IMG/VR virus record: IMGVR_UViG_3300042691_049967
Coordinates: 1 to 34,887 of that record
Reading direction: 5' to 3' (one strand)
DNA: 34,887 nt
Source: a virus
The position numbers and the translations under genes are program-made. Numbering within the stretch: position 1 is the stretch's first letter; each line of letters starts with the position of its first letter. The notes beneath the pieces were generated by a model, which worked only from the letters and a program-made list of their open reading frames with translations, did no database searches and had not been told where the DNA came from. Below are positions 3,087-34,887 of this stretch, piece after piece.

Positions 3087-5375
3087 ATGGCGTGGAACTC
3101 CCCAACGAATAAGTCTCTCTCTGGAACTCAAGGTAAGTCAATACTGACACCTGGGGCACCAGTTGCTTTTAATGTCAGCAATGCTGGCAAACCATATCGT
3201 GACTCATGGGATATTGAGCGCGCATACAGAGAAGGAATGGCCAAGGTAACTTGGGTAAACAGATGCATTGATGCAATTGCTGGAAACCAAGCACGTCTGC
3301 CTGCAATGTTGAGAAAAGATAATTCTCCAGATGGCAAGATTATTACCGATAATAAAGACAACAAGATTCTTGATTTACTTAATACCAAATCAAACATGGG
3401 TGAGAACTCATTTGTTTTTAGATACCGTCTCTCTTCGCAATTATTGATGTCAACTCGTGGTGCCTTCATTGAGAAGGTAAGAGGAAAAGATGGAAGCATC
3501 ATCGCTTTACAACTTCTTCCACCTCAGTACACAGCTCCAATACCTCATCCTCGTAAATTTGTTTCTGGATTTGAAGTTGACATGCGAAATGGGACAAAAA
3601 TAGTAGTTCCACCAGAAGATGTTATCTGGATTCGCAAGCCGCATCCGCTTGACCCATATCTGTCATTAACACCACTTGAGTCTGCGGGTATCGCTGTAGA
3701 AATTGAGAATCTTTCTAAGATTTACAACCGCAACTTCTTGTTGAATGACGGTCGTCCGGGTGGACTCCTTGTTGTCCGCGGTGAAATAGATGACGATGAT
3801 AAAGATGAATTAAGAAGTAGATTCAGAGGAAATATAAACAGAGCTGGAGCTGTAACTGTAGTTTCTTCAGACGAAGGTGTTGATTATGTTGACACTGGTT
3901 CAAATCCTCGAGATGCAAATTACATTCAAATGCGACAAATTACAAAAGAAGAAATTCTTGCTTCTTTTGGTGTTCCAGAATCCGTTATAGGAAATGCAGC
4001 TGGAAGAACATTTAGCAATGCGGCTGAAGAACATCGTGTTTTCTGGAACGAAACGATGCTCCCACACATGGAACTTATCGGTCGCGGCTTAGATGAGCTT
4101 GATGACGAGTACTATGTTGATTTTGATACTTCAGAAGTTCCAATTCTCATTCTTTACAAACAGGAACGAGAGCGCTATTTGCTTGATGAATTCCAAAACG
4201 GTTTAATCAGTGGCAATGAGTACAGAGCTCAAACTGGCAGAAAAAAAGTTGACTCAGACTTGATGCAAGCGATGTTGGCTAATCCAAACCTTACGCCAAT
4301 TGGTTATACCGACAGAAAGTTTGACTCGCAGGAACAGGCTCAGCAACAACAGGCCGCTGCCATGGCTGCTCAGGGTCAAGCCCCAGGTGTTCCAGGGGCT
4401 CCAGCAGCTGGCGCTCCAATGCCTGAGGGTCAACAGGTACCAGAAGCTGGTCAGCAACAATTACCAGAGATACCAGCGCAAATGGTTGACTTTACAGAAA
4501 AACCACAGACTATGTCTGAAGCGCTAGTAGCTGAACAGATATCTCAATCCACTGGTCCAGCAACACAGTCCTCACCAAGTGCCCTATCTGCATTTGATGA
4601 ATCAATGAGTTTTAAATCTGAAAACAAACAGATTCAAGAATGGGACGAAAAAGCAGAACAAAACAGCAAGCGATGGATTGAGATTTTGGATAGAAATCTT
4701 GAAAGACTTTTTGAAAGACAACAGCGAGTTGTTCTTGAAAAAGCTCTTGGGGCAAAATCCAAGAGGGCAATTAATGCTGGAAGTCTTGAAATTGAATCAA
4801 TCTTTGATATTGATGTCTGGAATAAGCAGGTAGAGGAAGACCTTAGACCTCTTGTGTCTGGAATAACGGCAGATGCTGGTTCTCTCATTTCTGAAACTAC
4901 CTCCATGCCAATTGATATGGAAGAAGATGAGGTGAAAGAATATATTGACGCTCAAGTTTCGCGTATGCAAAAAGTGAATGACACCACAAAAGAAGAACTA
5001 GCTTCAGCAATATTGGTAGCACTTGCCCTAGCAAATGATGAAGACAGGGTTGGAATGCTTAAAGCTGCTATTAGTGCGATTTTTATTAATTTGCTTAGCA
5101 AGAGAAAGCGCACAATAGCTGAGCATGAAGCCCAAACTGCATACAATGCTGGCGTCTACTTCGGTTCTAAACAAATCGGCGCATCATCAAAGACCTGGAT
5201 TTCGTCCAAAGATGCGAAAGTTCGTTCAGAGCACCGCCTGCTTGACGGCAAATCAGTAGCTGTTGGTTCGGTGTTTGACGTAAACGGAGTGGAAATAAGA
5301 TTTCCAGGAGACCCACTTTCTCCACCACAAATGACAATAAATTGCCGATGCAGACTCGGCTTCAATATTGACTAA
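3087..5375 (+). CDS. Portal protein fused to Mu gpF-like head morphogenesis domain
   Basis: The 762-aa protein has two parts. Residues about 30-410 match HK97-type portal proteins, which form the twelve-part ring through which DNA enters the head. Signs are W-V-N-R-C-I-D-A-I-A (56-65), the L-L-P-P segment near 144, and K-E-E-I-L-A-S-F-G-V-P-E-S-V-I-G (287-302) followed by F-S-N-A-A-E-E-H. A Gln/Pro/Ala-rich flexible linker spans about 414-465. The C-terminal part (about 510-762) is Mu gpF-like: a long helical region, R-T-I-A-E-H-E-A-Q-T (675-684), H716, P-G-D-P (740-743) and the family-typical N-C-R-C-R (752-756). MuF proteins are minor head proteins that enter the prohead. Portal-MuF fusions occur in other phages. 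The frame is unbroken, and the ATG at 3087 lacks a clear ribosome site. Confidence 0.9.
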   Translation: MAWNSPTNKSLSGTQGKSILTPGAPVAFNVSNAGKPYRDSWDIERAYREGMAKVTWVNRCIDAIAGNQARLPAMLRKDNSPDGKIITDNKDNKILDLLNTKSNMGENSFVFRYRLSSQLLMSTRGAFIEKVRGKDGSIIALQLLPPQYTAPIPHPRKFVSGFEVDMRNGTKIVVPPEDVIWIRKPHPLDPYLSLTPLESAGIAVEIENLSKIYNRNFLLNDGRPGGLLVVRGEIDDDDKDELRSRFRGNINRAGAVTVVSSDEGVDYVDTGSNPRDANYIQMRQITKEEILASFGVPESVIGNAAGRTFSNAAEEHRVFWNETMLPHMELIGRGLDELDDEYYVDFDTSEVPILILYKQERERYLLDEFQNGLISGNEYRAQTGRKKVDSDLMQAMLANPNLTPIGYTDRKFDSQEQAQQQQAAAMAAQGQAPGVPGAPAAGAPMPEGQQVPEAGQQQLPEIPAQMVDFTEKPQTMSEALVAEQISQSTGPATQSSPSALSAFDESMSFKSENKQIQEWDEKAEQNSKRWIEILDRNLERLFERQQRVVLEKALGAKSKRAINAGSLEIESIFDIDVWNKQVEEDLRPLVSGITADAGSLISETTSMPIDMEEDEVKEYIDAQVSRMQKVNDTTKEELASAILVALALANDEDRVGMLKAAISAIFINLLSKRKRTIAEHEAQTAYNAGVYFGSKQIGASSKTWISSKDAKVRSEHRLLDGKSVAVGSVFDVNGVEIRFPGDPLSPPQMTINCRCRLGFNID

Positions 5376-5473: not shown

Positions 5474-7894
5474 ATGAGCAATATTGCCCAAAACTTTACT
5501 GAAACTCAGTACAAAGCAATGCCTGGCCAAATTTCAACAGATGAGCTTCAGGGCATTGTTGAGTGTTTTGTCGCCGCAATCGGGAACAAGGACAGCGTAG
5601 GAGACATTTGTCTTCCGGGTGCATTTGATGCTTCTCTAAAAAGACGTAAGCCGCGCGTTGTGTGGGGCCACAACTGGAATGAACCAATTGGAAAAGTTCT
5701 TGATATTTACGAAGTGGGTCCAAAAGACCCAAGGCTTCCTGGGAAAATGAGAGCGAATAATGTAGGTGGATTATTTGCTCGTGTCCAATTTAATTTGAAG
5801 TCAGAGCGTGGGCGCGAAGCTTTCACAAACGTTTCATTTTTTGGTGAAGAACAAGAGTGGTCAATCGGCTATAAAACACTTGATGCAGTATTTGACAACA
5901 GCAGACAAGCAAACTTGCTGAAAGAAGTTGAACTTTATGAAGTTAGCCCAGTTCTTCATGGGGCAAACCAGCTAACTGCAACGATTTCAATTAAATCAGA
6001 TTCACAAGAAATGGAAACACCAGAATCATCTTTGGAAGCTGATGAAAAAGGCGAAAAGCTTAGAGACCCAAAGGGCGGTCTTACTGCAGCTGGTCGTGCG
6101 CATTTCAAGCGCACTGAGGGAGCAAACCTTAAGCCAGGCGTAAAAGGGCCTGCCGATACACCAACGAAAATGAGACGCAAAGGCTCGTTCCTGACGCGCT
6201 TCTTCACAAATCCACGTGGGCCGATGAAGGATGAAAAGGGGCGTCCAACACGTCTTGCTTTGTCAGCAGCGGCCTGGGGTGAACCTGTTCCACAGAACGC
6301 GGCAGATGCAGCAAAACTTGCAGCCAAAGGTCGTCGCATGCTTGAGAGATATCAAAACTCCAAGAAGAGCGATGATATGTCAGAAGTCGAAGAAAAAAAT
6401 TATGCAATTTATTCTTCAATGACAAATGAAGAAAATCCAATTACAGGAAAGATGGGCATGCTTGCTCGTCATCTTGGTCGTCACTTTGGTGGAAATGTAA
6501 CAGTACGTGAAGCTGACGAAAATATGGTTATTTTTGACATTGATAGAGATGGAAAACCAGAAACACTCCGTGCTGCATATCACAGCCCAGAACCAGAAAC
6601 ATTTATGTTTGGTGCGTCAGCTCCAGTTAGAGCACAAGTTGTATATGTGCCCATGAATGAAGCACAAACCGGAAGAACGATGATGAGACCTGGAATGGAA
6701 AGTGGCCACGGCCATTACGACGTGCCAAGGTCAGGAATGTCACAAAAGCCAGCTGGCGACTGCGGATGTGGTTGCAAAGGAGCTGGTTCATGCGAAATAG
6801 GAGCAGATATGAAATCTTGGTCAGACTACAAGAACGATACACCTGGCATACACATGTTTGTCAAAACGGTTGATATGGAAATGTTTGCAGCGGTTAACGA
6901 CATTGCAGACGACTACGGTTTTGATGTTGAGCTCCTTAACGATGGTTTTGTTATCCCAAATATTGACTGGCATGGCTCGGACGCACAGAACGAAGTAATA
7001 GGCGTTCTTGAAGGTGTTAGCGAAAAAGGTCTTGCTAGAGGTCTTGCTCGCGGTCTTAGAGGTACGGCACGCCGCGCTGGCCGCTCTTTGAGAGATGGTG
7101 ACGGCGACAATAAAATCACCAACCCGCGCACGGGAAGAGATGACATGCCAATTCCGCCAAAGCCGAAAATGATGCCTCCTCGAGAGATTCCAAAGGAAGT
7201 TCCAGAGAAACAGCCTCAAACTGTTCCAACTAGAACTCCGTCGCGACCAAGCACTCCTTCTCGTCCAGTTCCTTCAACCCCTTCCCGCCCAGCTCCAACA
7301 AGACCGCTTGTCCCAGCTGGTCGTGGAGTAAGTGGTCAAATGGGTAGCAGAAAGAATAGAGAAGCTCTTGGCCAGCACATTTTGCGCCAATTGCGTGAAT
7401 ACGAGTTTGATATTTCAGCACCATCAAAAGCTCCAAAACGAGCAATGGAGATGGCTCTTGATGAAATAGCCGAAAGAAACGCAATGACTAGGAAGCAACT
7501 TGACAAGATTCTCCGCAGATTAATTATGCAGGAACGCAGAGATGCCGTTCTTCGCCGTGCAGGAAGACTCAAATCAGCTGAGACACCGAACATTTATGTT
7601 TCAATCTCTGAGGTGAGCGACCTTGAGGTTAAGTCTGGTCTGCAGGTTGACTCAAAAGAAATTGACACCCTCCTCATTGACGCAGAACCAGAAATGATGT
7701 TTGCTGTTAAGTCTGCAGTTGATTCTATTGGTGAGTTTTACGGGTTTGAGTCTTATGCGACTGATGCTGGAATTCAAATAAAAGATGCTTCGTATCTCCC
7801 TGGTGATGCAATTGAAGCCATTGCAAATGCTTACATGAACGTGTCTGGAGAGTATGACCTTGTTGATTTTGAGTTGAATCGTCTTGCCAGATAA
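5474..7894 (+). CDS. HK97-type prohead protease fused to DUF6321-like and repeat domains
   Basis: Residues 1 to about 175 form an HK97-type prohead protease (peptidase family U35/S78), which matures head proteins inside the prohead. The expected catalytic residues are visible: His66 in V-V-W-G-H-N-W-N, Ser130 in E-W-S-I-G-Y, and Glu153 or Glu156 in E-V-E-L-Y-E-V-S-P-V-L. Residues about 196-295 look like the small family I recall as DUF6321 (G-L-T-A-A-G-R-A-H-F; R-R-K-G-S-F-L-T-R-F; A-A-W-G-E-P-V-P). Further on are a Cys cluster (430, 432, 434, 440), a repeat-like domain (about 459-516), an Arg-rich helix with a D-G-D-G-D-N-K acidic loop, a Pro/Ser/Arg linker, V-S-G-Q-M (619-623), a basic helical stretch and a second repeat copy (about 730-791). 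At 806 aa it is several times the usual length of these proteases (near 200 aa), so the extra parts may be scaffold, decoration or substrates. Confidence 0.88.
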   Translation: MSNIAQNFTETQYKAMPGQISTDELQGIVECFVAAIGNKDSVGDICLPGAFDASLKRRKPRVVWGHNWNEPIGKVLDIYEVGPKDPRLPGKMRANNVGGLFARVQFNLKSERGREAFTNVSFFGEEQEWSIGYKTLDAVFDNSRQANLLKEVELYEVSPVLHGANQLTATISIKSDSQEMETPESSLEADEKGEKLRDPKGGLTAAGRAHFKRTEGANLKPGVKGPADTPTKMRRKGSFLTRFFTNPRGPMKDEKGRPTRLALSAAAWGEPVPQNAADAAKLAAKGRRMLERYQNSKKSDDMSEVEEKNYAIYSSMTNEENPITGKMGMLARHLGRHFGGNVTVREADENMVIFDIDRDGKPETLRAAYHSPEPETFMFGASAPVRAQVVYVPMNEAQTGRTMMRPGMESGHGHYDVPRSGMSQKPAGDCGCGCKGAGSCEIGADMKSWSDYKNDTPGIHMFVKTVDMEMFAAVNDIADDYGFDVELLNDGFVIPNIDWHGSDAQNEVIGVLEGVSEKGLARGLARGLRGTARRAGRSLRDGDGDNKITNPRTGRDDMPIPPKPKMMPPREIPKEVPEKQPQTVPTRTPSRPSTPSRPVPSTPSRPAPTRPLVPAGRGVSGQMGSRKNREALGQHILRQLREYEFDISAPSKAPKRAMEMALDEIAERNAMTRKQLDKILRRLIMQERRDAVLRRAGRLKSAETPNIYVSISEVSDLEVKSGLQVDSKEIDTLLIDAEPEMMFAVKSAVDSIGEFYGFESYATDAGIQIKDASYLPGDAIEAIANAYMNVSGEYDLVDFELNRLAR

Positions 7895-9756: not shown

Positions 9757-12700
9757 GTGACAGATAAAAAACACGATTTTGCTAAATCTGCAATAAGTAA
9801 AGCTGCGTTCAATAAGGACATCTCTTTAGCGACCGCGCCATCTAATTTCAAAGCAGATAAACCAAAATCAAAACCGTCTGTCAAACCTGAAACAGAACAA
9901 GAAGAACCAGAATTTGAAAATCCATTTGACGAGTTTGTAAAAACTTGGCAACAAGGAGACATTCTTCCTTTTATTCCACCTGGAATGACTTTTCACCTTT
10001 GCAAGTACAAGCTGAATAATCTTGATACAGATGCAGAATACCTTGGCCTTGATAGCAAATACAGAAAAAAACCAGATGCGAAGATTAAGAAAAAGTCTTC
10101 CATGTCTGATATTGACATTAAAAATCTTGGTCCAAAACTTCGCAACTCTGTTGAAACTGTCAGACAGAGAGCACTAAGTAGGCGCGGTGGACTCGTGCCA
10201 TGGGTTGACGATAACAACAAACTTCGTTGCCCATCTGGGACGCCAGCGGCAAACCAATTCACCGATGAAATGATGAGCAACTGTTTCATCGTGTCCCCAG
10301 GAACGGTTGCTGGTGCCGGCAGAAGAGCCATCAGGCGTGCTGGCGCAGCTGCGGACATTCTTTCTACTAAACCAGGACAACGTGTTGGCGTTAGTACAGT
10401 TCCTGGAGATATTGATGTAAGTAATGAAGAGGGAATACGCAAGCTTGGGCCAAGTGGCGCTCAAGCACTCATGTCTTCTGGTGGTCGAGTTGGCGTCGAG
10501 CTTGGAATAGCTGGGCAAATGGGTGGAGGATTTGGTTTCCGTGCAGACCCCAAGAAACGTTCAGCATCAAAAGCTTGGCAACTAGGTGTTAAAGAACAGC
10601 TTGAGCGAGGCAGACGAGCAACCTACCTTTCAGATGAACTGCACAAAAGAATGATTAATCCTTCAGCCCCTGGTGGGATACGCCTACCAAGTGGTGCTGC
10701 TGTTGGCGACATTCGCAATAAAGCGAACTTCATGCGAGCAATGACAGAGTTGTTTCCAAATGTGAACCCAGATGAAATTGAGTCGATGTTTGACAATGCT
10801 ATGCCAGACAATTTGACGTATATAGATAAAATCAAGTTCCGCAAATCTTTAGTTGCATTTCATGAAGCATTCATTTTTGAAGCAATAAACGCTCCAGAAA
10901 AAGCAAAATGGATGACGAGAATAGTAATGGACCCAAGCCTTGATGCGGCCATTGAAATAAAACTAGAACCATTTGCTCCTTCAATTACCAGCGGCAACCG
11001 CGTAGCTTCAATAGCATCGCAAACAGCTGCACAAAAAGCAGGAAACCTTGCAAATGGTGGAGTTCATTTCACCATGGCATTCAATCCAATGCAGATGTTT
11101 CTTGCTTCACGCGGTGTAGGGCACACGAGAAATGGTCGTGCAAACGGAATATCGGATTCACAACGTGGCGACATGCATTACATAGCTGTTCACGAATTTG
11201 GGCATATTTCACATTTTGGTTCTGTAATGGAAAGATTGGGTTTTGATAACTCAACATTAAACCGCTATCAAATGACCAGAACGCTCACTCGTGGCGGTGG
11301 TGGACCACCTTCATGGAATCCAAACCAAGAAGTTGGTGGATGGATTATTGACTGGACGCAAGCACAAAATCCGATGAACAGTCCTTCAATAGCTGCACTA
11401 ATTCAGGGTGCTCAAAACTTGCAAACAAGAAACTATAAAGGTGGAAACTACGGACGCGGAATATATGGTTTCACTCGTAAAGACCTTGAAAAAGATTTAA
11501 GTGATTTTTATGACGGTTTAATAGAAGCTGTTCACAACAACATTACAGATACTCCAGACGATGTTGCAATTATGCGCGCCTTTGCTGGTGGTGAATATGC
11601 CGCACTGAATAGCATTGAAGCACGAGCAGAATATTTTGCTGCAAGAAGAATGTTTGGTGAAACTGCAGACAACAGATTGAAAGCCCGTCGAAGAGGGTCG
11701 CTTTATAGGGCGCGAAATCAGGGATATCAAGCAAACTATGTAGAAGATTTTGCCAAAGCATGGTCCACTGGTCCATGGAACCAGCCAGGAGCTGGGGGAA
11801 CAGTTCTTACGCCAAGACAGATTTATGACGACATGGACAGAATCGGTGAAAATATTTCTGGCGTAAAGCCGAATCGATGGAATATCAGTGGAAGAATGTC
11901 AACTTCTACAAGGCCGAGAAAATCTGCACATGCACAAAATGTTGCTAGAGCAGTTCGTTCAACAGAGAGACTCAGCGACCCGAATAGCGCACAGTACAGA
12001 CGTAGGTCTATTTCTGGAAGAATGGCAACTTCCGGCTCTGTCAAGTCACAAAATACGCTCATGCCAACCTACCCATCGTTGGCAGAACCACTAGGAATAA
12101 TTAATCCAGAGCCAAAAGAAGCTAGTCGTTCGGCAAAAATCCTTCAAGATGCATCAAAAGTAAATGGTGTCACTTGGTCAAACCCGGTTCCAGTTGAAGA
12201 GGTAGAGAAGGCTAAGGACTGGGCGAATTCAACGTTGGTGTCAAAGTTTGAATTCCATAAAAAGTCTCTAGAAAATGGTTTGCCAGAGCTAAGCGAATAT
12301 CAAAAAGATTGGCTACAAAAAGTAATTGTTGACGCAAAGAAGGAACTCTCATACGAAGATGCGAGAACAATACTTGGAGACAGTGTAAATGATTACGCCT
12401 CAATGACTTCTTTGCTACGTGAACACGCAAGGCTTAGTAGTGATGATGCCAGAGTACAGCGAATTGATGCGTTCGTAGGAACAATGCAAAGCATGTCAAA
12501 AAATGATTTTGAAGAAATGCTTCCATCACTTTTGTCTTCTAACACATCAAGAGCCGATAAGCGCGTCCACGTGATGATGAATAATCCAACATTGCTGGAG
12601 ACTGCCGGGGAGTATTTAACAATCCACGACAAAGCAGAGAGGGATGCTCTCGGAATTGGGTATACAGGTTTTGCACAAGAAGGATTTACTGCTGATGTAA

Positions 12701-15700
12701 GAAAAGGCGTAGAAACTTGGTTTGGAATACCGTCAACCGACGACGAAGAAGTTCGAAGACTTCGGCCAGCTTCTGGCTTCTTGCCTCATGCTGATTCTGG
12801 ACAAGGAAGAATGGGCAAACTTCGTTCAGAGTATGGTCCTGATGTTCAGATAATGCATCCGTATGCAATGGGTTACGACTCATCAGAAAGTAACGGTGTT
12901 AGAAAATATGGCACCAACATGGTTGTTCTGAGAAGCGAGGTTTCCGAGCGCACAAAGACGCTTAGGGGAGACTCGGCTGCAGATAGAGCAAATAATGGAA
13001 ATGTGATACTTCCAGTAAGTGAAATGCTTAAACCAGAAAATAGCGTTGTTTTACACCAAGATACTGGGGCATCTCTGTTATGGGATGAAATCGTTGGCAG
13101 AGGTGGTTTGAATTCTTCAAATAGTCGTCAAAGCTATAACGAAGCAGTTGTTCTTGGTGCTTTTAACCTTAAAGATGATGTTGAAGCAATGGTTGTTTCG
13201 CCACAAAATTTTGACCTTGATGAAGATGAACTAGCAGAACTTCCACAGGGCATTAATCCAAAATCGGCAAACCCACTAAACATGCCAACAAAACTGGTTA
13301 AAGCTGCAAGATTCCGAGATAGAATGCTGAAAGAGAACGGAATTGACGTCGTTGTTGCAACTCCGTACGACCCAGTTAATCCGTATGGAAAAGAATTTGG
13401 ACTTGATGAAGTTGAGTTGTTTAATCCACAAATGACAAGACAGTGGATGGGGAAGAATTTTCCACAGGCAAACCTAGATGAAGTCATTACAGACGAAAAG
13501 ACAACTCCGTACGAAGCATTTATAAAGCACATATCCAAAGGGGTTGACCCAGAATCCGCATCTGGTCGTATTCTCGCTTCTGAAATAGAAAGACTTGAAG
13601 AACAAAAACTACGTACATACGGAGAGGCCGAGCTTGGTAGAGGCTCTTTAGCAGACCAAATTGACTCACGCGGAATGGAATTACTGCCATCTGTTGCGCG
13701 CCGTTCAGTAAGTGGAAAGATGTCAACCCAGCGTGTCACGCCAGACGAGATGGTTGAAGTTGCAGAGATATCTAAACGAGGTGTTGCCGAGCGTAAGCAA
13801 AAAGCAGACGCCGCAAAAACAAGAGTTGCCAATCTTGAAGAGGCGCTTAGAATTCTTGACGAAACAGGAGAATGGAAAGGCGCAGAACTTGGCGTATCGG
13901 TAGCAATGGTCACTGACCCAACACTTGAAACAATCGATAACCCCAACCTTGTCCCAAATAGTAAAACTAGAGCTGAGCTTGAAGCATCTCCTGGCGGTAT
14001 TCCGGCAGTACGCGAAAAGCTTTTAAGCAAAATTGACCGCGCTAAAAAGGAAGAAGCTCTACAACAATATTTGGCAGATAAAAAGAAAATTAGAGTTTCG
14101 CAAAATGTTCTAGATATTGAAGACATATCTCCAGAAGATGTTGAAATCCTCCGAGAAGAAGCACGAATTATAAAGCAAATGGAAACAACCGATAAAGATG
14201 CTTTCTTGTCTTTGGTTGGCACAAATAAGCCCAGTGAAGAGTTTGCCATCCATGCTGGTTCAGCAGAACTTGATGGAGGTCAGCTAAACGCAGCAAAAAC
14301 AGAGGGTGATGAGTTTGGCGGTTTAGCAAACAATACACAAGCTCTAAACAACACAAACATTCAAATATTCACCTCGGAGAGAGAAGAAAATATTGCACGA
14401 GAGGCAGCTTCTTCTGGATTGATGAAAAAACTTGAATCGATGCAACCTTTCACAATTGACTCAAGGGAAGAACGCGCATTGCTTATCGATATCGGATTCT
14501 CGGAAAAAGAAATGCAGGTTGGTTCAATTTTTGATGCACAAAGCATGTTTGGACAGAATGCAACCGAAACCATGCCTGGTTATATTGATAGACTTCAAAA
14601 AGCTCAGAATTCGTATAGAAACAAAATAAAAGCTGGAGAAAAAGTAGCAAAAGCACTCAAAGATAATCCACGTGGTGGATTTCTTTCTGCATATCCAGCA
14701 AGTAGGGGCAGTTTTGTAACACGTGGATACTTCGGTAGATGGGCATTTAAAGATATACCCAAAGACGTCGCTGAAATACCAACAGACAAGCCTTTTGATG
14801 GCCAAGAACCAAGTGGGAAAACAATAGACCAATTCATGGAAACACGCTGGAGAAACAATCTTCGAGGAACAGCATGGTTGGTGGACGGTTCAAAAAATGC
14901 TGTTGTTACAGACGTTCTTGGGCCAAATGTAGAGCGCCAGATTGTTGGTACAACGAAACCAGTATTTGGTTTGTCTGCAAGAAAAAATGATGCCAACACT
15001 CTTGATGATATTGGATTTGCGGTAATGGCACGAGCCATGCAGCTTCAAAAAGAAGGAAAAGAAGTAACACCGGAAACAGTTCTTTCAACTAGTCTTCAGA
15101 GAACGCTTTCAGGGAAAATGAGTACAGGGGCAAAACCAGTGAGACCAAAATATCCGCGGACTCCAACATATGGCGTTGGTATCGGAGCTGGCGATGGCCT
15201 GTTTGATAAAGCTGCCTCATGGCGTGAGTTTAAAGAAATCTACGAAGACCGCGAAATTGTTTTCCTTGATTATGAGACCACAGGTCTAGTTTTTGACGAG
15301 TTCGGAAAATCGACCTCAAATGGCGCTCCTGTTCAAATTGGTGCTGTGAAAGTAAAGAACGGCAAAGTCGTAGCCAGATTCAATGTGTTCATTAATCCAA
15401 ATGAAAAACTTGGTGAATGGTCTAGGGAAAACCTAAAGGATAGAGACGGAAATCCACTCACCGATGATTGGTTGTCTGGGCAGCCATCAATTGCTGACGC
15501 TCATCGCCAACTTGCAGAATTCGCTGGCCCAGACGCAATCATGGGTGTACAGAACGCGTCGTTTGACAAGAACGTCCTTGAAGATGCACTGAAGAGTTCA
15601 GGTATTGAATGGACTCCAAGTGGCTACATCGACACTAAAGAAATTTCAAGCATGGTCCTCCCAAGATGGACGCCAGAAAACCCAGACGGCCCTGCAAAAA

Positions 15701-16026
15701 TGGGTTCAGATGGTGTGAAGCGTCCGTCAAATGGATTGAAGGAAATCACCGAGTATCTAGGTGTTGAGCTTGGAACCAAGCACCACACAGCTGATGCTGA
15801 CGCCGAAGCCACCGCTGAAGTGATGCAGAAAATCATTGATAAAGCCATAGAGAATGGTTGGAGCGACAGAATCTTTAGTAAATCAACACGCCAGGCACAT
15901 ATTGACAAAGTCAACCAAAAGCATCTCCAAGAAATTGAAGAATTCAAGAAAGCTCGAGATGCATTTTTGGCAGAAGTTGAGCGACTTGCTACTAAGCGAG
16001 ACGATGGAAGCGAAAAAGATAATTAA
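9757..16026 (+). CDS. Giant modular protein (2089 aa): zincin metallopeptidase and DEDDh exonuclease modules
   Basis: The frame opens with GTG 9757 and runs unbroken for 2089 residues. A Cys-x17-Cys module (C158-C176, R-C-P-S-G-T-P...F-T-D) is followed by an Arg-rich helix. A zincin-type metallopeptidase has H479-E480-F-G-H483 and a likely third zinc ligand, Glu625, in E-A-R-A-E-Y-F-A. Four motifs of type I/V/L-S-G-R/K-M lie at residues 710, 752, 1318 and 1784, plus a variant I-A-G-Q-M at 251. Between 752 and 1318 is an uncharacterised domain ending in Y-N-E-A-V-V-L-G-A-F...D-D-V-E-A-M, possibly related to DUF3626/ADP-ribosyltransferase-like folds (weak). Residues 1318-1784 start with coiled coil. 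After the last motif comes a DnaQ-like 3'-5' exonuclease: D1838-Y-E1840, N1933 and D1937, H2010 and D2015. Hypothesis: a polyprotein cut between modules by the prohead protease. Not a tape measure: no long periodic helix. Confidence 0.85.
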   Translation: MTDKKHDFAKSAISKAAFNKDISLATAPSNFKADKPKSKPSVKPETEQEEPEFENPFDEFVKTWQQGDILPFIPPGMTFHLCKYKLNNLDTDAEYLGLDSKYRKKPDAKIKKKSSMSDIDIKNLGPKLRNSVETVRQRALSRRGGLVPWVDDNNKLRCPSGTPAANQFTDEMMSNCFIVSPGTVAGAGRRAIRRAGAAADILSTKPGQRVGVSTVPGDIDVSNEEGIRKLGPSGAQALMSSGGRVGVELGIAGQMGGGFGFRADPKKRSASKAWQLGVKEQLERGRRATYLSDELHKRMINPSAPGGIRLPSGAAVGDIRNKANFMRAMTELFPNVNPDEIESMFDNAMPDNLTYIDKIKFRKSLVAFHEAFIFEAINAPEKAKWMTRIVMDPSLDAAIEIKLEPFAPSITSGNRVASIASQTAAQKAGNLANGGVHFTMAFNPMQMFLASRGVGHTRNGRANGISDSQRGDMHYIAVHEFGHISHFGSVMERLGFDNSTLNRYQMTRTLTRGGGGPPSWNPNQEVGGWIIDWTQAQNPMNSPSIAALIQGAQNLQTRNYKGGNYGRGIYGFTRKDLEKDLSDFYDGLIEAVHNNITDTPDDVAIMRAFAGGEYAALNSIEARAEYFAARRMFGETADNRLKARRRGSLYRARNQGYQANYVEDFAKAWSTGPWNQPGAGGTVLTPRQIYDDMDRIGENISGVKPNRWNISGRMSTSTRPRKSAHAQNVARAVRSTERLSDPNSAQYRRRSISGRMATSGSVKSQNTLMPTYPSLAEPLGIINPEPKEASRSAKILQDASKVNGVTWSNPVPVEEVEKAKDWANSTLVSKFEFHKKSLENGLPELSEYQKDWLQKVIVDAKKELSYEDARTILGDSVNDYASMTSLLREHARLSSDDARVQRIDAFVGTMQSMSKNDFEEMLPSLLSSNTSRADKRVHVMMNNPTLLETAGEYLTIHDKAERDALGIGYTGFAQEGFTADVRKGVETWFGIPSTDDEEVRRLRPASGFLPHADSGQGRMGKLRSEYGPDVQIMHPYAMGYDSSESNGVRKYGTNMVVLRSEVSERTKTLRGDSAADRANNGNVILPVSEMLKPENSVVLHQDTGASLLWDEIVGRGGLNSSNSRQSYNEAVVLGAFNLKDDVEAMVVSPQNFDLDEDELAELPQGINPKSANPLNMPTKLVKAARFRDRMLKENGIDVVVATPYDPVNPYGKEFGLDEVELFNPQMTRQWMGKNFPQANLDEVITDEKTTPYEAFIKHISKGVDPESASGRILASEIERLEEQKLRTYGEAELGRGSLADQIDSRGMELLPSVARRSVSGKMSTQRVTPDEMVEVAEISKRGVAERKQKADAAKTRVANLEEALRILDETGEWKGAELGVSVAMVTDPTLETIDNPNLVPNSKTRAELEASPGGIPAVREKLLSKIDRAKKEEALQQYLADKKKIRVSQNVLDIEDISPEDVEILREEARIIKQMETTDKDAFLSLVGTNKPSEEFAIHAGSAELDGGQLNAAKTEGDEFGGLANNTQALNNTNIQIFTSEREENIAREAASSGLMKKLESMQPFTIDSREERALLIDIGFSEKEMQVGSIFDAQSMFGQNATETMPGYIDRLQKAQNSYRNKIKAGEKVAKALKDNPRGGFLSAYPASRGSFVTRGYFGRWAFKDIPKDVAEIPTDKPFDGQEPSGKTIDQFMETRWRNNLRGTAWLVDGSKNAVVTDVLGPNVERQIVGTTKPVFGLSARKNDANTLDDIGFAVMARAMQLQKEGKEVTPETVLSTSLQRTLSGKMSTGAKPVRPKYPRTPTYGVGIGAGDGLFDKAASWREFKEIYEDREIVFLDYETTGLVFDEFGKSTSNGAPVQIGAVKVKNGKVVARFNVFINPNEKLGEWSRENLKDRDGNPLTDDWLSGQPSIADAHRQLAEFAGPDAIMGVQNASFDKNVLEDALKSSGIEWTPSGYIDTKEISSMVLPRWTPENPDGPAKMGSDGVKRPSNGLKEITEYLGVELGTKHHTADADAEATAEVMQKIIDKAIENGWSDRIFSKSTRQAHIDKVNQKHLQEIEEFKKARDAFLAEVERLATKRDDGSEKDN

Positions 16027-27830: not shown

Positions 27831-30800
27831 ATGGAACCAACTGACCAAAACGAAAATGTAACAGAATTTGGCGAAAAAGCCATGCTCTCGCAGCGCGTTA
27901 TTCGCGCGACTGACCCTGATACATATTCGGACCCAGAATCAGCACGAGTTCGTGCGCGACAATTAGGGTGCATAGGTATTCGTCGTTACATGAACCGTAA
28001 TGGTGGACAGTCGTGGATGCCTTGCACAAATGAATCAGACTATAGAAAATACTCTGGTCAAGGATACTCTGGTCGTAAATTTAGACGCCAAGAAATTGAT
28101 AGAGCAGTAAGAGATTCAATAGGAAGAAACCACGGTCGTACTTTCCGTGAAAAGAGCGCAAACTACACAAAACCAGAATTGCGTGAACGGCTCAAACAGC
28201 GCATTATGTCTGGTTCAAAAGGTGGTCGCCCCGGTCAATGGTCAGCACGCAAAGCTCAATTACTAGCTATTGCATACAGAAAAGCTGGTGGTGGATACAA
28301 GGGAGGCAAATCAAAGAAGCAACGCTCTTTGGTTCGTTGGGGTAAAGAAAAATGGAGAACATCTGACGGGAAGCCAGCAATACGTGGAGCGGTAACCAGA
28401 AGATACCTTCCTGCTAAAGCTTGGTCAAAGTTATCTCCAGCTCAAAGAGCGGCAACAAATCGCAAAAAGATAACTGGTAGTAAGCGCGGAAGTCAGTTTG
28501 TTCCAAATACCGAGGCAGCTGCTTCTGCTAGAAAACGCGTATCCCGCGGAATGAAACACATTGAGTTCTATGAAGAACTTGAAATAAAAGCAATTGGCTC
28601 AAGAGTCGGTGGAAGAATTGGTCGGGCAATTGCTCCAGGCGGAGATAGTGGACCTCGAGTTGGTAGAACTGCACGCCGTGCAAGAATTGCTGGTCGACTA
28701 GACAACGTTGCATTTGACCCAAATCCAATTGACGCTGACGCCGACTTGCAGGTACAAGAAGGAACTCGCTGGGAAAGAACAATAACTCCACAAGCAAGTC
28801 TTGCTTCAAGACTTGGCCGTGGTGCCGTTCAGATGCCTAGAAGACAACCGAAAGAAACGCGTGTAGAACGAGAAATCGTTCGTGGAAGAAGCAAGCCAGA
28901 AGCCCCCATCCGTCGCGTCCAGAAACCACGTGAAACAGTTGGCAGAGAAGTAACCGCAATCCCAGAAGTACGTAAGCCAATAACAACAACACGTACTCCT
29001 GGAAAACGAACAAAGAAACCAACTGAAGCTGTAGCCAAACCATCTATCCTTCGGTCGGATGAAAGACAAGAAGAAGTACGTAGGTCGTTTGAAGACTTAA
29101 GTTCAGTACTTGACCGTGCTGAAAAAGCTCAAATTTATAAATCTTGGGACGAGGGAAGATACACGGTATCCGAACTTGCTGACCAGTTTGATGTCGTTCA
29201 AGATGAAATCAATTCGGTGATTAAGGACCACAGCAAATATAGAGAATCTTCATACAGGTCTTTCCGTAAAGCAAATCCAAAACTTGCGCTAGCAATTGAT
29301 AAGAAATTTGATAAAACAAAAACCAATATTGAGAATGCAATTCGTGATGGAATCATTCGCAACTGGGACAGCTTGCTGAATTACGCACTGCGCTCACCGG
29401 GCGAGAGGTCAATGAAGGACAAAATTACGAAAGAACTTTTTGGTGCATTCAGTAATGGCGCTGACCCAGACGGTAAAGGAAAACTTGTACTTGGGTATAG
29501 GCGTTCACGAAGAAATGGTGTTGATACTGTAGTAAGAGACATTGCCGACAGAAATGCAATGCCTTCAGATTTCAGTACTTTATACCAGTACAGACAAGTC
29601 GCTCCAACTATTGATTCAAGAGCGATATCTGCTCGAGATATGAACGAACGAGCAACACGAGCTCGCGAATTCAGAAAGTATCAAAGAACAATTGATGCTT
29701 CGAACATGTGGGATACGAGCATTAGCGGTCGCATGGCTGCTGGTCCATCGATGACTCCAGAAGACGAAAACAAATGGCGCATGCAGGAGTGGAAGCGTCA
29801 GCAACTAAAGAAGCTTTCTCTTAATCCAGAAGTCGGAAATGGAAAGTTGCCGGCTCTAGCTGGTCTACTTGGAGAAGGCGACTTGGCTCAAGGCATCAAC
29901 TCAATTGATGAGCTTTCGGAAGATGTAGTCAATAGCGTGTGGGATGAAACACTCCAAGATTTGATGAAAAATGGAATGAGAATTCCTAGCTATCGTGCAA
30001 AAAATGCGCCATTAACACCAAAAGAGCTTGCAATAGCAGCTAACGCAAAAAGGCCACTAGTTTCAGCATTCTTGGATGAAGTAAAGAAACTAAACCCAAA
30101 TGGAAACTTTGCACGTATTGACATCGATTCACTAGGTGATAAAGATGTTGAAGACCTATTTAACACATTTATACTTCCTGAACTCACAAACCCTGATACA
30201 CCTTCAATTCAGGATGTACAAATCGCTGCTGGTCTTCCACAGTCTAGAGAAATGGTTTCACTAGCTGATTCTGTTGCATGGCTTGTTCCAGATAAATTCA
30301 AAGACCTTGAAATACGGACACTAATAGCAAAACAGCAGCTCAAAGATGTTGGGATGAGCGAAGATGACCCCGCATTTGACGAGGCTCTTCAAAGATTGAT
30401 TAATGAAGAGTACGATAACGAAGCTACATCTGGAATCAATGATATTGAGAGCTGGCTGCAAGCTGGAGCACCACCAGTTGCTCGTGGTGGTGGCGGAGGG
30501 AAAACACCACCGCCAATTAATCCATCAACCGGAGAACCATTTGATGAAGATTCTTGGCGCGAACAAATAAACAACCTGGTCAGCAAGTATGAAACCGAAT
30601 CAGACAAAGCACGGCAAGAACTTGAAGAAATACTTGGCCAACTATATGACATTGGTCGGGCACAGGGTTGGATAGATGATTCAAATGAGCCGGGTGGAGA
30701 TGGCGACGATGATGAAAGCTATATGCCAGAAGAAATTGGCGACGGAATGCCAACACCATCAATTGAGGACGAGTTTGGTTATCCAGACACAGACGAAGCT

Positions 30801-33800
30801 TGGGAAACACCGTACATAGATGAAAATGGAAATGAAATTCCATATGATGGTTCAGATACACACCCATTGAATGTCAATCCTGAGACAAATCAACCATACA
30901 ACGTTGAAGAAGACAATCAAATGGATGAAGACCTGTATCGCTTCTTTCTTGACCCAAACAATATGCATGTACGAGAATGGATGGACCTTGACAACACCCA
31001 TACCATTGCGCGTTATGCAAAGCCACCAGCAGAACTAGCAAGGCGTTTTTATCAGGGCGACATAGACGACCCAAATCCAGAAAAGATTGACAAGAGAATT
31101 GACTGGAACAGACTTGTTAACTATATACAGAAAGTATCTCCGCACTTTTTCACAAGAGACAAACAAGGTGAACTTGTAGCTGACCTCGCTGAAATTACTC
31201 GTAGTGGAAATTATGATGGAGCAAGTTTCAACCCAACTCCAGACCCTGACGCAGACCCATCTGGATATCAATTCAGACAGCAATTAAGAGAATTCGTAGA
31301 TGCAAAGCGACAAGAAGAGGCGCAACTTGTTGCCTCTAGTGACCAAACTGGAAAAGCTCGTCGCGCAGCCTTATGGAAGTTGCTTGAAACAGATACATTG
31401 ACACCTGATGAAATTGCTTTTGATGAGCAAATGTTTGATGTCGCAAATGTTAACGCAGCGCTTTCACTCTATGCACTAGAGAACAACATATCAAACAATA
31501 AGCTCAGTAGTCTTCTTAAGGTAGCCAAACAGGCAGCTCCATCAAGAGCGGATGACTATGCAAAACGCCGAGTGGAAAGAATTGCTCAACAATTCATCGA
31601 CCAAGGCAAGTCTTCTAGACAGGCTCTTGCTGAAATTGATAGAGCGATTGAGCACCAGATTGAACTGCGTACAAAAGTAGGAATTGAATACGACAATATG
31701 CGCCGCGAACATATGGCTCTTCGCAATATGGTTACATCGCTATTGATGATGCGTCCAAAGAATCGCAAGCAAACATATAACAGAGATGGAAGCGTGCGTC
31801 GTCGTGGGTGGGACCCTAAGAAAGAATCTGCATCGCGCTATCTAAATCGCATGGCCAGATGGGATAGAGAATTCATTGGTCATATTGACAGAAATGGCAA
31901 CTGGAGACCAGGTGTTGTATCACAGCTTGTTAGTCGTTTGCGCCAACTCGAAATAACCACTGGCGCTGTAGCTGGTGGTGGTGCAACATCGGACATATTT
32001 CAGACAGCAGACCAAAATATTGAGCGCTTGAGAGAGATGCGCGAACTAATTGAAGATGCTAGAGGAGAAGCGAGACGCTTCGGTATTAGCGGTTTTATGA
32101 AATCCGGTGGAGCTGACGCCCGTCTTCTTGGAAGAGCAGAAGAGCGTGCGCGCATGTCGGCTCGTAGAGCAGCAAGTGGACACTTCATATTTGCATCTCC
32201 AAGAAATCTCAAGAGATACGACGATTTTGGTTTGCCAATTTCACGTCAAACACGAATATCCGCATCTGGCTTCAATAAGCGACTATCCACATTGACCGAA
32301 GAAGCGACCAGAAGCAAAAACTTTAAATGGTCTGAAAACAGATTCTTCAATCGTCTTCCAGACAGACTTAAAGACATTGTACGTGGGCTTGATGAAACTC
32401 CGTATACATTCTCGAGTCGTGGATTTAAGACAATGTTCCCAGCAAGAACAGCAAGAAGAGGACAGTCTGTCGGTGCTGGTATGGCGAGACCTGAAGACTA
32501 TGAAGCATTTGAATTACTCCCAGCAAATCCAATTTTTGTCGGTAAGAAAACACAACCAAAACGCAGAACAATATCTGGCGCAATGCGTTTATACACTGAC
32601 CAAATTGGTAACGAGTGGTATGTAACAGACAGAAATGGCGACATCGTAGTTAATACCCCATTTAATTCTCACGATGACGCATTGTTCTATGTTCGTCAAG
32701 TACAACAGGGATTTGAAGATAAGCCAGAATTTCAATTTAATGACACTGTCCGTTTTGCTGCCTACAAAAAACGAATTGACACATACCCATATCACGGCGA
32801 AGGCAGAATTCGCGAAATAGCTAGTCAGATGAATACGGAATGGGTTGAAAATCAAGCTCGTGGACCAAAGAAAACAGCAGCTGACTCAATAATCATGCGC
32901 ATGAATCCAGAAACCGGTGAAAAAGAAGTAGCAATGATTCGCCGAGCATTCCCACCATTCTCTGGAGATAGGGATGTAACTCTCCCAGGCGGATTCGTTG
33001 ACCCAACAGACCTCCCTGATGGAAAGACGCAAATTGATGATGATGTGTTTGTGACTACAGCACTTCGAGAACAACTTGAAGAAGTTGGTATTAAAGAAAG
33101 CGATATCCTAAAACAAGAATTTATTGGTGAGCTTGACGAACCAGATTGGGACCCACGATTCCCAAATGGAATGCGTGTTGGTGGTGTTTATTTTGAAGTA
33201 AAACCAGACACACAGCTAGTAGCTGCCGATGACGCAAAAGCAGCATTCTGGGTACCGATTGAAAAACTTGCAAGAGGCGAACAGGCAGTTGGATTCGGTC
33301 ACGCTGGCTTTATCTCGGCAATGCTTTGGAACGATGACGATTCTGATTTAGCAGACAAAATGGCAATTGTTTCACAATTGGCAAGAAGAAGAAATCAAAG
33401 AATCATTCGTGAAGTTAACCGTCAAAGAGCTTTGCGAAATGCAAATAAACCTAAGAGCGAACAAGTTCCACTATTCCCTAAAGATTTGCCAAATCCAGAT
33501 GCTGGTTATATTCCTGGTGGAAAAGCCGCCGAAGAAAGAGCACGTGCAACATATAGACGGCTAACTGGAAGAATGTCGGGAACACCAGTAGATAATACTG
33601 AATTAAATGACAGAGTTCGATATGCGCTTGTTAATTACTCTGGCGATGGTTTTGGCTTGCTAAATCAAATTCTACGAGAAACAAATGGATTGGTTCTTGA
33701 TAGGAATATGATAAATAATCGCGAAGCATTATTAAACGCCATCAACAACAATGACCCAGCAAGTCTTGCAACAAGAATTGGGATGGGTACAGAAAGCTCG

Positions 33801-34887
33801 TACAAGCGTTTAATGAATGAGCTTGAAATATACAGAGATATGAACGACTGGCTAAATGCAGGAACTGTTCCAGAAAATACAGTTTTGTATAGAACACTTG
33901 GACTCTGGAAAGGGATTGAAGACCTCAACGTAGGTGATGAGTTCTATGACGGCGCGTTCCAAAGCACAACATCAAATATTAACCAAGAATTTTTATGGGG
34001 TCCAAGAAATCTTCGTATATTTGTTGGAAGCGGGGTATCTGGGCGTTCACTATCAGAAGGAATTGAATCTAGCCGATTTGCGGAAGACGAATTTATTTTG
34101 CCAGCTGGAGCTAGATACAAAATTCTAAGAAAACCAGACAACTCATCAAGTACAAGAAAAAATAGTGCTGAACGATTCTGGGATGTTGAAATAGTGAGCC
34201 AAGGTGTTTCTGGAGCAATGCGTGGTACTCCTGCATTTCCGTGGAATGTGGACAGCGGCGACATTAGGGCAAGAATAAAGTCATCTAATTCAGATGATTC
34301 GTTGAATGTGGCAATAAAGCGCTCTGTATCAGGGAAAATGGCCATACCACGCACGCTGTTTGTGGGAAGAGATTTTTACGCAGACCTTGACTTGGCACCT
34401 ACGGCTACATTGAAAGAAATCAAAGATTCTTATAGAGAGATTTCAAAGCAATTTGGCACAGATAGAAATCTGGGAAGTAAAATAGCTGCAGAAAAACTTC
34501 GCGCAGCAACGGAAGCATTTGACGTACTATCTGACGCAAAAGAACGCGATTACTACGATTCAACAATCTTTCCAAATATTCAAAAAGATGCTAAAAAATT
34601 GAGCAGTTCACCAGCATCTGGGCCATCTGCACCACCACGTAGAGCAGTTCAGCCAGAAGCAACCAAGGCTCTTCCAAAGCTTAAAAACACACTTGGAAAA
34701 CGTCTCGGCATTTCTATCGAAATAAAAGACAACATCATCCCAGGCCAATCATCATTGAGTAGATATAGAGTGGCTCCAACTGAAAAAGGTGTGGATATAC
34801 CTGGCCCTAGTGGAGTCAAAATCAGAATAGACGAAGATAGATTCTGGGATGTTTATCACAAAATTGCTTCTGGAATCCAAAAAGGCG
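27831..34887 (+). CDS. Giant modular protein (at least 2352 aa, runs off the window): DUF5872-like, Nudix, ADP-ribosyltransferase and J-domain modules
   Basis: Starts at ATG 27831 with an AAGGGA ribosome site; no stop before the window end. Order: a Cys-x17-Cys segment (C47-C65); a basic DUF5872-like domain (about 113-233; G-G-R-P-G-Q-W-S-A-R-K-A-Q and R-Y-L-P-A-K-A-W; name from memory); an Arg-rich helix plus F-D-P-N-P-I-D-A-D-A-D loop (about 294-312); a long helical stretch; an acidic low-complexity region (about 960-1040); a Nudix hydrolase (G-G 1720-1721; R1746-E-Q-L-E-E-V-G-I) with an insertion between the box halves; an ADP-ribosyltransferase with R2021 in L-Y-R, S-T-T-S (2045-2048) and E2085-D-E2087; and a J-domain-like fold (about 2178-2240) whose HPD is G-T-D (2209-2211). 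I/V/L-S/T-G-x-M motifs sit at 631, 1419, 1581, 1911, 2126 and 2166, several flanking these modules. Likely a virion polyprotein, by inference. Confidence 0.85.
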   Translation, partial: MEPTDQNENVTEFGEKAMLSQRVIRATDPDTYSDPESARVRARQLGCIGIRRYMNRNGGQSWMPCTNESDYRKYSGQGYSGRKFRRQEIDRAVRDSIGRNHGRTFREKSANYTKPELRERLKQRIMSGSKGGRPGQWSARKAQLLAIAYRKAGGGYKGGKSKKQRSLVRWGKEKWRTSDGKPAIRGAVTRRYLPAKAWSKLSPAQRAATNRKKITGSKRGSQFVPNTEAAASARKRVSRGMKHIEFYEELEIKAIGSRVGGRIGRAIAPGGDSGPRVGRTARRARIAGRLDNVAFDPNPIDADADLQVQEGTRWERTITPQASLASRLGRGAVQMPRRQPKETRVEREIVRGRSKPEAPIRRVQKPRETVGREVTAIPEVRKPITTTRTPGKRTKKPTEAVAKPSILRSDERQEEVRRSFEDLSSVLDRAEKAQIYKSWDEGRYTVSELADQFDVVQDEINSVIKDHSKYRESSYRSFRKANPKLALAIDKKFDKTKTNIENAIRDGIIRNWDSLLNYALRSPGERSMKDKITKELFGAFSNGADPDGKGKLVLGYRRSRRNGVDTVVRDIADRNAMPSDFSTLYQYRQVAPTIDSRAISARDMNERATRAREFRKYQRTIDASNMWDTSISGRMAAGPSMTPEDENKWRMQEWKRQQLKKLSLNPEVGNGKLPALAGLLGEGDLAQGINSIDELSEDVVNSVWDETLQDLMKNGMRIPSYRAKNAPLTPKELAIAANAKRPLVSAFLDEVKKLNPNGNFARIDIDSLGDKDVEDLFNTFILPELTNPDTPSIQDVQIAAGLPQSREMVSLADSVAWLVPDKFKDLEIRTLIAKQQLKDVGMSEDDPAFDEALQRLINEEYDNEATSGINDIESWLQAGAPPVARGGGGGKTPPPINPSTGEPFDEDSWREQINNLVSKYETESDKARQELEEILGQLYDIGRAQGWIDDSNEPGGDGDDDESYMPEEIGDGMPTPSIEDEFGYPDTDEAWETPYIDENGNEIPYDGSDTHPLNVNPETNQPYNVEEDNQMDEDLYRFFLDPNNMHVREWMDLDNTHTIARYAKPPAELARRFYQGDIDDPNPEKIDKRIDWNRLVNYIQKVSPHFFTRDKQGELVADLAEITRSGNYDGASFNPTPDPDADPSGYQFRQQLREFVDAKRQEEAQLVASSDQTGKARRAALWKLLETDTLTPDEIAFDEQMFDVANVNAALSLYALENNISNNKLSSLLKVAKQAAPSRADDYAKRRVERIAQQFIDQGKSSRQALAEIDRAIEHQIELRTKVGIEYDNMRREHMALRNMVTSLLMMRPKNRKQTYNRDGSVRRRGWDPKKESASRYLNRMARWDREFIGHIDRNGNWRPGVVSQLVSRLRQLEITTGAVAGGGATSDIFQTADQNIERLREMRELIEDARGEARRFGISGFMKSGGADARLLGRAEERARMSARRAASGHFIFASPRNLKRYDDFGLPISRQTRISASGFNKRLSTLTEEATRSKNFKWSENRFFNRLPDRLKDIVRGLDETPYTFSSRGFKTMFPARTARRGQSVGAGMARPEDYEAFELLPANPIFVGKKTQPKRRTISGAMRLYTDQIGNEWYVTDRNGDIVVNTPFNSHDDALFYVRQVQQGFEDKPEFQFNDTVRFAAYKKRIDTYPYHGEGRIREIASQMNTEWVENQARGPKKTAADSIIMRMNPETGEKEVAMIRRAFPPFSGDRDVTLPGGFVDPTDLPDGKTQIDDDVFVTTALREQLEEVGIKESDILKQEFIGELDEPDWDPRFPNGMRVGGVYFEVKPDTQLVAADDAKAAFWVPIEKLARGEQAVGFGHAGFISAMLWNDDDSDLADKMAIVSQLARRRNQRIIREVNRQRALRNANKPKSEQVPLFPKDLPNPDAGYIPGGKAAEERARATYRRLTGRMSGTPVDNTELNDRVRYALVNYSGDGFGLLNQILRETNGLVLDRNMINNREALLNAINNNDPASLATRIGMGTESSYKRLMNELEIYRDMNDWLNAGTVPENTVLYRTLGLWKGIEDLNVGDEFYDGAFQSTTSNINQEFLWGPRNLRIFVGSGVSGRSLSEGIESSRFAEDEFILPAGARYKILRKPDNSSSTRKNSAERFWDVEIVSQGVSGAMRGTPAFPWNVDSGDIRARIKSSNSDDSLNVAIKRSVSGKMAIPRTLFVGRDFYADLDLAPTATLKEIKDSYREISKQFGTDRNLGSKIAAEKLRAATEAFDVLSDAKERDYYDSTIFPNIQKDAKKLSSSPASGPSAPPRRAVQPEATKALPKLKNTLGKRLGISIEIKDNIIPGQSSLSRYRVAPTEKGVDIPGPSGVKIRIDEDRFWDVYHKIASGIQKG

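What the first reader, a model, noticed from the sequence alone, without database searches (positions are those of the whole stretch)
33840..34140. R-S-ExE ADP-ribosyltransferase module flanked by S/T-G-x-M motifs
R2021 in V-L-Y-R, the S-T-T-S strand (2045-2048) and E2085-D-E2087 in A-E-D-E-F-I-L-P-A-G-A form the full catalytic triad of the arginine-type ADP-ribosyltransferase exoenzymes. T4 packages related Alt enzymes in its head, cuts them with its prohead protease and injects them to modify host RNA polymerase. The motifs at 33561 and 34206 bracket this module, which fits release as a separate enzyme of roughly 210 residues.
Basis: partly seen in the sequence, partly recalled or inferred. 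Interest (0 to 1): 0.68.

Follow-up and report, generated by a model that had tools for sequence, protein, structure and literature searches.

The report
Phage polyprotein with ADP-ribosyltransferase module
A phage known only from environmental DNA carries, inside one giant protein, a complete enzyme module that should attach ADP-ribose to host proteins, set between repeated short motifs that probably mark where the giant protein is cut into pieces.

Summary
The finding holds. Residues 1915-2129 of an open-ended 2352-aa ORF (27831-34886, +) form a complete R-S-ExE ADP-ribosyltransferase (ART). Pfam PF03496 (E 3.9e-5, at its cut-off), profile comparison with phage ARTs (97.7%; unrelated modules 1% or less) and an AlphaFold model (pLDDT 84; C3 exoenzyme Z 15.6) agree. 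One ortholog was found, a 65%-identical polyprotein in an 84-kb contig; it keeps the catalytic residues and both flanking motifs. 'S/T-G-x-M' is really [ILV]-[ST]-G-x-M: enriched 26-40-fold in polyproteins A, D and E of this phage family and 14-fold in its S78 head protease, absent from capsid protein, terminase and polyprotein C. It sits between domains. The ART is one cassette beside Nudix and DnaJ modules (and a Zeta kinase in the ortholog), in a gene that lies just upstream of the capsid gene in relatives: a 'polyvalent protein'. Packaging, cutting and injection are inferred. The S78 protease is the favoured cutter, but the capsid protein lacks the motif. New here: the motif as a probable module-processing code.

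The parts
27831..34886 (+). polyprotein E, 2352 aa, open at the window's end
   Evidence: ortholog of 3284 aa, 65% identical
33573..34217 (+). ART module, residues 1915-2129, between two motifs
   Evidence: PF03496, PHROG 3895, hhalign 97.7% to phage ARTs, AF2 model pLDDT 84, C3bot Z 15.6
33891..33893 (+). catalytic R2021 (R of R-S-E)
   Evidence: at least 90% conserved among 56 aligned phage ARTs
33963..33974 (+). S-T-T-S 2045-2048 (S of R-S-E)
34083..34091 (+). E2085-D-E2087 (ExE)
   Evidence: ERE in the ortholog; ExE also in three cultured-phage ARTs
33561..33575 (+). LTGRM, motif before the ART module
   Evidence: kept in the ortholog
34206..34220 (+). VSGAM, motif after the ART module
   Evidence: kept in the ortholog
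34326..34340 (+). VSGKM, motif before the DnaJ module
   Evidence: VTGQM in the ortholog
29721..29735 (+). ISGRM motif in polyprotein E
32085..32099 (+). ISGFM motif in polyprotein E
32571..32585 (+). ISGAM motif in polyprotein E
32901..33275 (+). Nudix domain, residues 1691-1815
   Evidence: PF00293 E 4.6e-8
34371..34559 (+). DnaJ domain, residues 2181-2243
   Evidence: PF00226 E 1.2e-9
5474..7894 (+). S78 prohead protease with a long C-terminal part; linker motif VSGQM at 7328-7342; favoured cutter
   Evidence: PF04586 E 2.9e-12; motif site conserved in many relatives
9757..16026 (+). polyprotein A: four [ILV]SGxM motifs, HEFGH (zincin-like) at 11191-11205, exonuclease domain 15259-15822; alternative source of the cutter
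3087..5375 (+). portal-MuF fusion (head context)
   Evidence: PF04860 and PF04233

Best explanation
Polyprotein E is a phage 'polyvalent' cargo protein made with the head proteins. It is most likely packaged inside the capsid, cut at the [ILV]-[ST]-G-x-M linker motifs into separate enzymes, and injected with the DNA. The module 33573-34217 would then be released as a ~215-residue NAD-dependent mono-ADP-ribosyltransferase with the C3/VIP2 fold and R-S-ExE catalytic residues; ExE predicts modification of arginine in a host protein early in infection. Shown here: ART family and fold, intact catalytic residues, the motif-bounded module and its conservation in one ortholog, and the gene's place just upstream of the capsid gene in relatives. 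Inferred: packaging, cutting, the cutter (S78 protease favoured over the zincin-like domain of polyprotein A), injection, and the target.
For: ART. Motif-bounded module and family-wide motif enrichment. The motif is the conserved spot of a variable Pro/Arg-rich linker in the protease. Head context: portal-MuF and S78 protease upstream, capsid-like gene directly downstream in relatives. Precedent: polyvalent proteins and head-packaged ARTs (PMC5512222, PMC9503650); one head protease cutting many internal head proteins at a short motif in SPN3US (PMC10052503).
Against: No protein-level data exist for packaging, cutting or injection. The capsid protein, the usual S78 substrate, lacks the motif, and so does polyprotein C. 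One motif falls inside a DnaJ domain in G017. The ART was found in only two contigs of the family. The Pfam score only just reaches the cut-off.
Confidence: 0.6

Rival explanations
1. The ART and its neighbours act as one uncut giant injected protein; the motif is a docking or packaging signal (for example a scaffold- or capsid-binding linear motif repeated along the chain), not a cleavage site.
For: The capsid protein lacks the motif although S78 proteases normally cut it; N4 virion RNA polymerase is packaged unprocessed (PMC5512222).
Against: Many copies per chain, placed between domains, and a copy in the protease's own linker, suit cleavage better; a docking signal would be expected once per protein, and other shared once-per-protein elements exist.
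Confidence: 0.22
2. The polyprotein is cut at the motifs, but by a zincin metallopeptidase (as proposed for other polyvalent proteins) rather than by the S78 protease.
For: Polyprotein A has HEFGH, its G002 counterpart HEVGH, and the ortholog's E ends with HEMFH; Iyer et al. propose MPTase autoprocessing. The capsid protein lacks the motif.
Against: No HExxH in the E proteins of seven other relatives that carry the motifs, though only some of their other genes were read; the S78 protease itself carries the motif in its linker.
Confidence: 0.2
3. The ART module is not released or injected; it works in the producing cell late in infection, or serves against other phages, and its place in E is incidental.
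For: Nothing here shows packaging; ARTs also occur as stand-alone late genes in phages, for example Gordonia phage Hanem gp26.
Against: The gene sits between head protease and capsid genes in relatives, the setting of packaged polyvalent proteins (PMC5512222, PMC9503650).
Confidence: 0.12
4. The motif is an internal translation start (GG six bases before ATG) that yields separate proteins from one gene.
For: Every motif ends in ATG with GG upstream.
Against: Ser is encoded by both AGY and TCN, Thr by ACN, the x codon varies, and a hydrophobic residue precedes; selection is on the protein.
Confidence: 0.03

Closest known systems
Polyvalent proteins of phages (Iyer et al. 2017, PMC5512222; PMC9503650)
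   Same: Giant multidomain proteins encoded among head genes; ART, Nudix, Zeta-like kinase and metallopeptidase domains are named there in polyvalent, MuF-fused or other head-associated proteins; packaging and injection predicted.
   Different: The passages read explain processing by a built-in metallopeptidase; here a repeated [ILV][ST]GxM motif lies between modules and in the head protease.
C3/VIP2-type ADP-ribosyltransferases (Pfam PF03496), including phage MuF-ART and 'VIP2-like' proteins
   Same: Fold, R-S-ExE residues, N-terminal helices.
   Different: Only about 14-31% identical to the phage ARTs aligned here other than its ortholog; embedded in a polyprotein rather than solo or MuF-fused.
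Phage T4 Alt with prohead protease gp21
   Same: A head-associated ART in a phage with a head protease (T4 facts from general knowledge and PMC5512222).
   Different: Not a close relative by the searches here; Alt is a stand-alone gene, and cutting here is inferred.
Salmonella phage SPN3US prohead protease gp245 (PMC10052503)
   Same: One head protease cuts many internal head proteins, and itself, at a short motif.
   Different: Its motif is A-x-E and, apart from self-cleavage, the cuts remove N-terminal propeptides; here [ILV][ST]GxM would split a multidomain protein.

Membership tests
R-S-E class ADP-ribosyltransferase (PF03496) | Profile match to the family | tested here: met
   23.5 bits against a cut-off of 23.4 on the isolated module; PHROG 3895 E 6.1e-5; hhalign 97.7%
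R-S-E class ADP-ribosyltransferase (PF03496) | Catalytic R, S-T-S/T and E-x-E in order | tested here: met
   R2021, S2045-T-T, E2085-D-E2087; conserved in the ortholog and aligned with cultured-phage ARTs
R-S-E class ADP-ribosyltransferase (PF03496) | ART fold | tested here: met
   AF2 pLDDT 84; PDB matches are ARTs, C3bot Z 15.6, rmsd 3.0, 162 aligned
R-S-E class ADP-ribosyltransferase (PF03496) | NAD-dependent transferase activity | not testable with these tools
   needs a biochemical assay
Phage polyvalent protein | Several unrelated effector-type domains in one chain | tested here: met
   Nudix, ART, DnaJ in the window; Zeta_toxin as well in the ortholog
Phage polyvalent protein | Encoded among virion structural genes | tested here: met
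   portal-MuF and S78 protease upstream; capsid-like gene downstream in relatives
Phage polyvalent protein | Packaged in the virion and delivered to the host | not testable with these tools
   needs virion proteomics
T4 Alt-type head ART | Sequence or fold specifically Alt-like | tested here: inconclusive
   An 'RNA polymerase ADP-ribosylase' of an Aeromonas phage matches at E 1.1e-5, below many VIP2-like and MuF-ART entries; no direct comparison with Alt was made
Prohead-protease substrate | Cut at a defined motif by the phage's head protease | not testable with these tools
   motif enrichment in cargo and protease but not in the capsid protein is indirect

The most novel reading that the evidence does not exclude
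This phage family uses [ILV]-[ST]-G-x-M as a dedicated processing code: giant head-packaged polyproteins are cut at these sites during head maturation into many injected effectors, and new effectors such as this ART are gained and swapped as cassettes between the sites.
Probability: 0.45. Interest if true: 0.7.

Novelty: new variant of a known kind. Interest (0 to 1): 0.45.

Why it matters
Many phages carry giant proteins of unknown processing. A short motif that delimits modules would let one read the individual effectors and their boundaries straight from sequence, and would make this ART and its neighbours testable as separate proteins of defined length.

Tried and rejected
Single-sequence AlphaFold gave pLDDT 37.5 and was discarded. 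Sequence searches of the PDB found no relative (NUP188 and RadA hits have E 0.075 or worse and are taken as chance). Scans of viral contigs with the window module, whole E, the ortholog's module, the two-sequence alignment or a Microbacterium phage ART found only the one ortholog or nothing; a genome-contig scan with a mixed ART alignment found none. The same mixed alignment in viral contigs gave the ortholog and a MuF-ART. An ExE-loop DNA pattern supplied the phage ARTs for the structure alignment (80 of 81 extracted segments match an ART profile); these share the ExE by selection, so their ExE conservation is not independent evidence. PF03496 was sought in 45 related records: the ortholog passes the cut-off, and a partial 16.7-bit match in a 129-aa frame of G004 was taken as chance. 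The ~210-aa modules before DnaJ in other relatives were suspected to be divergent ARTs; profile comparison gives 0.1-0.8%, rejected. The protease motif at 6440 lies where S/T is not conserved (N-P-x-x-G-R-M-G) and was not counted as a likely processing site. An internal translation start was rejected from codon use. Literature searches listed no title or abstract that describes the motif; three papers were read in part, so this is no proof of absence.

Full report
What is there. The window is a whole IMG/VR virus record of 34,887 bases, 42-45% G+C. Right of a leftward terminase it carries, on the + strand, a portal-MuF fusion, an S78 prohead protease with a DUF6321 domain, a protein with a weak PepSY match, and several large ORFs: A (2089 aa), B (684), C (2116), D (725) and E (2352, open at the window's end). 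The finding lies in E.

Check of the observation. R2021, S2045-T-T-S and E2085-D-E2087 are at the stated residues, and LTGRM (33561) and VSGAM (34206) flank them. The isolated module matches Pfam PF03496 ADPrib_exo_Tox at 23.5 bits (cut-off 23.4, E 3.9e-5) and PHROG 3895 at E 6.1e-5. Scanned within the full-length chain, PF03496 is not reported for the window, whereas it is for the ortholog at E 5.9e-5.

The one ortholog. Among relatives found through the protease, only IMGVR_UViG_3300020161_003640 (G002, 84 kb) matches E along its whole length, 65% identical. Over the ART module identity is 54-57%; R, S-T-T, E-x-E and both bracketing motifs are kept. Its later part, beyond where the window ends, has a Zeta_toxin kinase domain and a HEMFH sequence.

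Homology and fold. A two-sequence profile of the module aligns with four phage ART proteins at 97.7% probability, E 2.5e-12, with S-T-T and E-x-E in register and R close to the template's R. As a control, motif-bounded segments of 150-900 residues from nine polyproteins were compared with the same ART profile: the ART segments of window and ortholog gave 97.4% and 92.4%, all others 1.0% or less. A MuF-ART protein in another contig (L136), which matches PF03496 at E 1e-32, is a sequence bridge (tblastn E 1e-5 to the window within that scan). AlphaFold2 on 56 aligned phage sequences gave pLDDT 84 and pTM 0.81, with lower confidence at both ends and in a few loops. Foldseek's listed PDB matches are ARTs; VIA-align gives C3bot Z 15.6 over 162 residues, rmsd 3.0; viral matches include VIP2-like and head-protein ARTs. 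The alignment is made of ARTs, so the model supports the sequence result but is not independent of it.

The motif. [ST]GxM occurs 15 times in the window's ORFs against 2.7 expected. With a hydrophobic residue in front, observed/expected in dereplicated family proteins are: E 53/1.3, A 46/1.8, D 7/0.2, protease 22/1.6, B 3/0.5, portal-MuF 2/0.8, PepSY protein 1/1.1, and none in C, terminase, g6 or the capsid protein. The consensus is [IVL]-[ST]-G-[RSAK]-M-[SGAR]. Serine uses both codon families and x varies, so selection is on the protein. The protease's second site is the conserved spot of a variable Pro/Arg-rich linker in many relatives. In seven polyproteins with 49 motifs and 38 listed domains, one crossing is seen (a DnaJ domain of G017) against 7.25 expected for motifs placed at random (P 0.004). 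The domains were picked by me from the Pfam tables, plus the fold extent of the ART, so this is a rough test.

Modularity. Segment lengths between motifs agree among several divergent relatives: about 600-634 first, later about 145-162, then a Nudix segment. After Nudix, the window and its ortholog have the ART (about 215) and a 36-40-residue piece before DnaJ; G008, G014 and G017 have other segments there, with sigma-70-region-4-like matches in G017. The ART therefore looks like a cassette of one lineage. An ART profile finds it nowhere else in the family sequence held, though most of those records are fragments.

How it probably works. In relatives E sits immediately upstream of a capsid-like gene; its identity as major capsid protein rests on my reading of the sequence. 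Multidomain proteins in such a setting are the 'polyvalent proteins', predicted to be packaged and injected, with ARTs described as their commonest macromolecule-modifying enzymes (PMC5512222, PMC9503650). The simplest reading is synthesis with the head, packaging, cutting at the motifs, injection, and ADP-ribosylation of host protein, by family knowledge on arginine because of ExE. SPN3US shows that a head protease can cut many internal head proteins at one short motif, A-x-E (PMC10052503). The S78 protease is the favoured cutter because its own linker carries the motif. Against it, the capsid protein does not carry the motif, and the zincin-like site in A is an alternative. Cultured actinophages with related portal and protease lack the motif in the proteins checked, so as far as seen it belongs to this uncultured family.

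Verdict. As an ART this is a new member of a known kind; the motif-delimited architecture is a new variant of polyvalent proteins.

Noticed in passing
window D residues ~76-97 and E residues ~295-316 (28713-28778); L040, L045, L059, L082 and others: A shared element F-D-P-N-x-x-D-A-D-x-D-x-x-V-Q-E-G-T-x-x-E-R after a basic stretch occurs once in each of several different proteins, including the C-terminal part of the S78 protease in relatives; a candidate capsid-targeting tag.
   Followed up: partly
window A residue 157, B residue 132, C residue 189: A shared R-C-P-...-F-T-[DN]-...-C element occurs once in the N-terminal part of A, B and C, and in 46 loci of relatives; another possible tag.
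   Followed up: partly
window 18803-25153: Polyprotein C (2116 aa) has no Pfam match at E 0.1 and none of the motifs, unlike its neighbours.
   Followed up: no
window 15259-15822: The C-terminal part of polyprotein A is an exonuclease domain (PF00929 E 5.5e-13; PHROG 192) after the last motif of A.
   Followed up: no
window 34371-34559: The DnaJ domain appears to lack the usual H-P-D (F-G-T-D in the window, F-S-P-D in the ortholog), so it may not activate a DnaK.
   Followed up: no
window E residues 108-236: This N-terminal region has relatives in Pelagibacter, Roseobacter, Methylophilales and Synechococcus phages, in separate hypothetical genes.
   Followed up: no
L239 20697-34571 (Streptomyces phage Gilgamesh gp48): A cultured relative by portal and protease has a 4624-aa hypothetical protein between its portal-MuF and capsid genes, with only 2 S/T-G-x-M and none with the hydrophobic residue.
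   Followed up: partly
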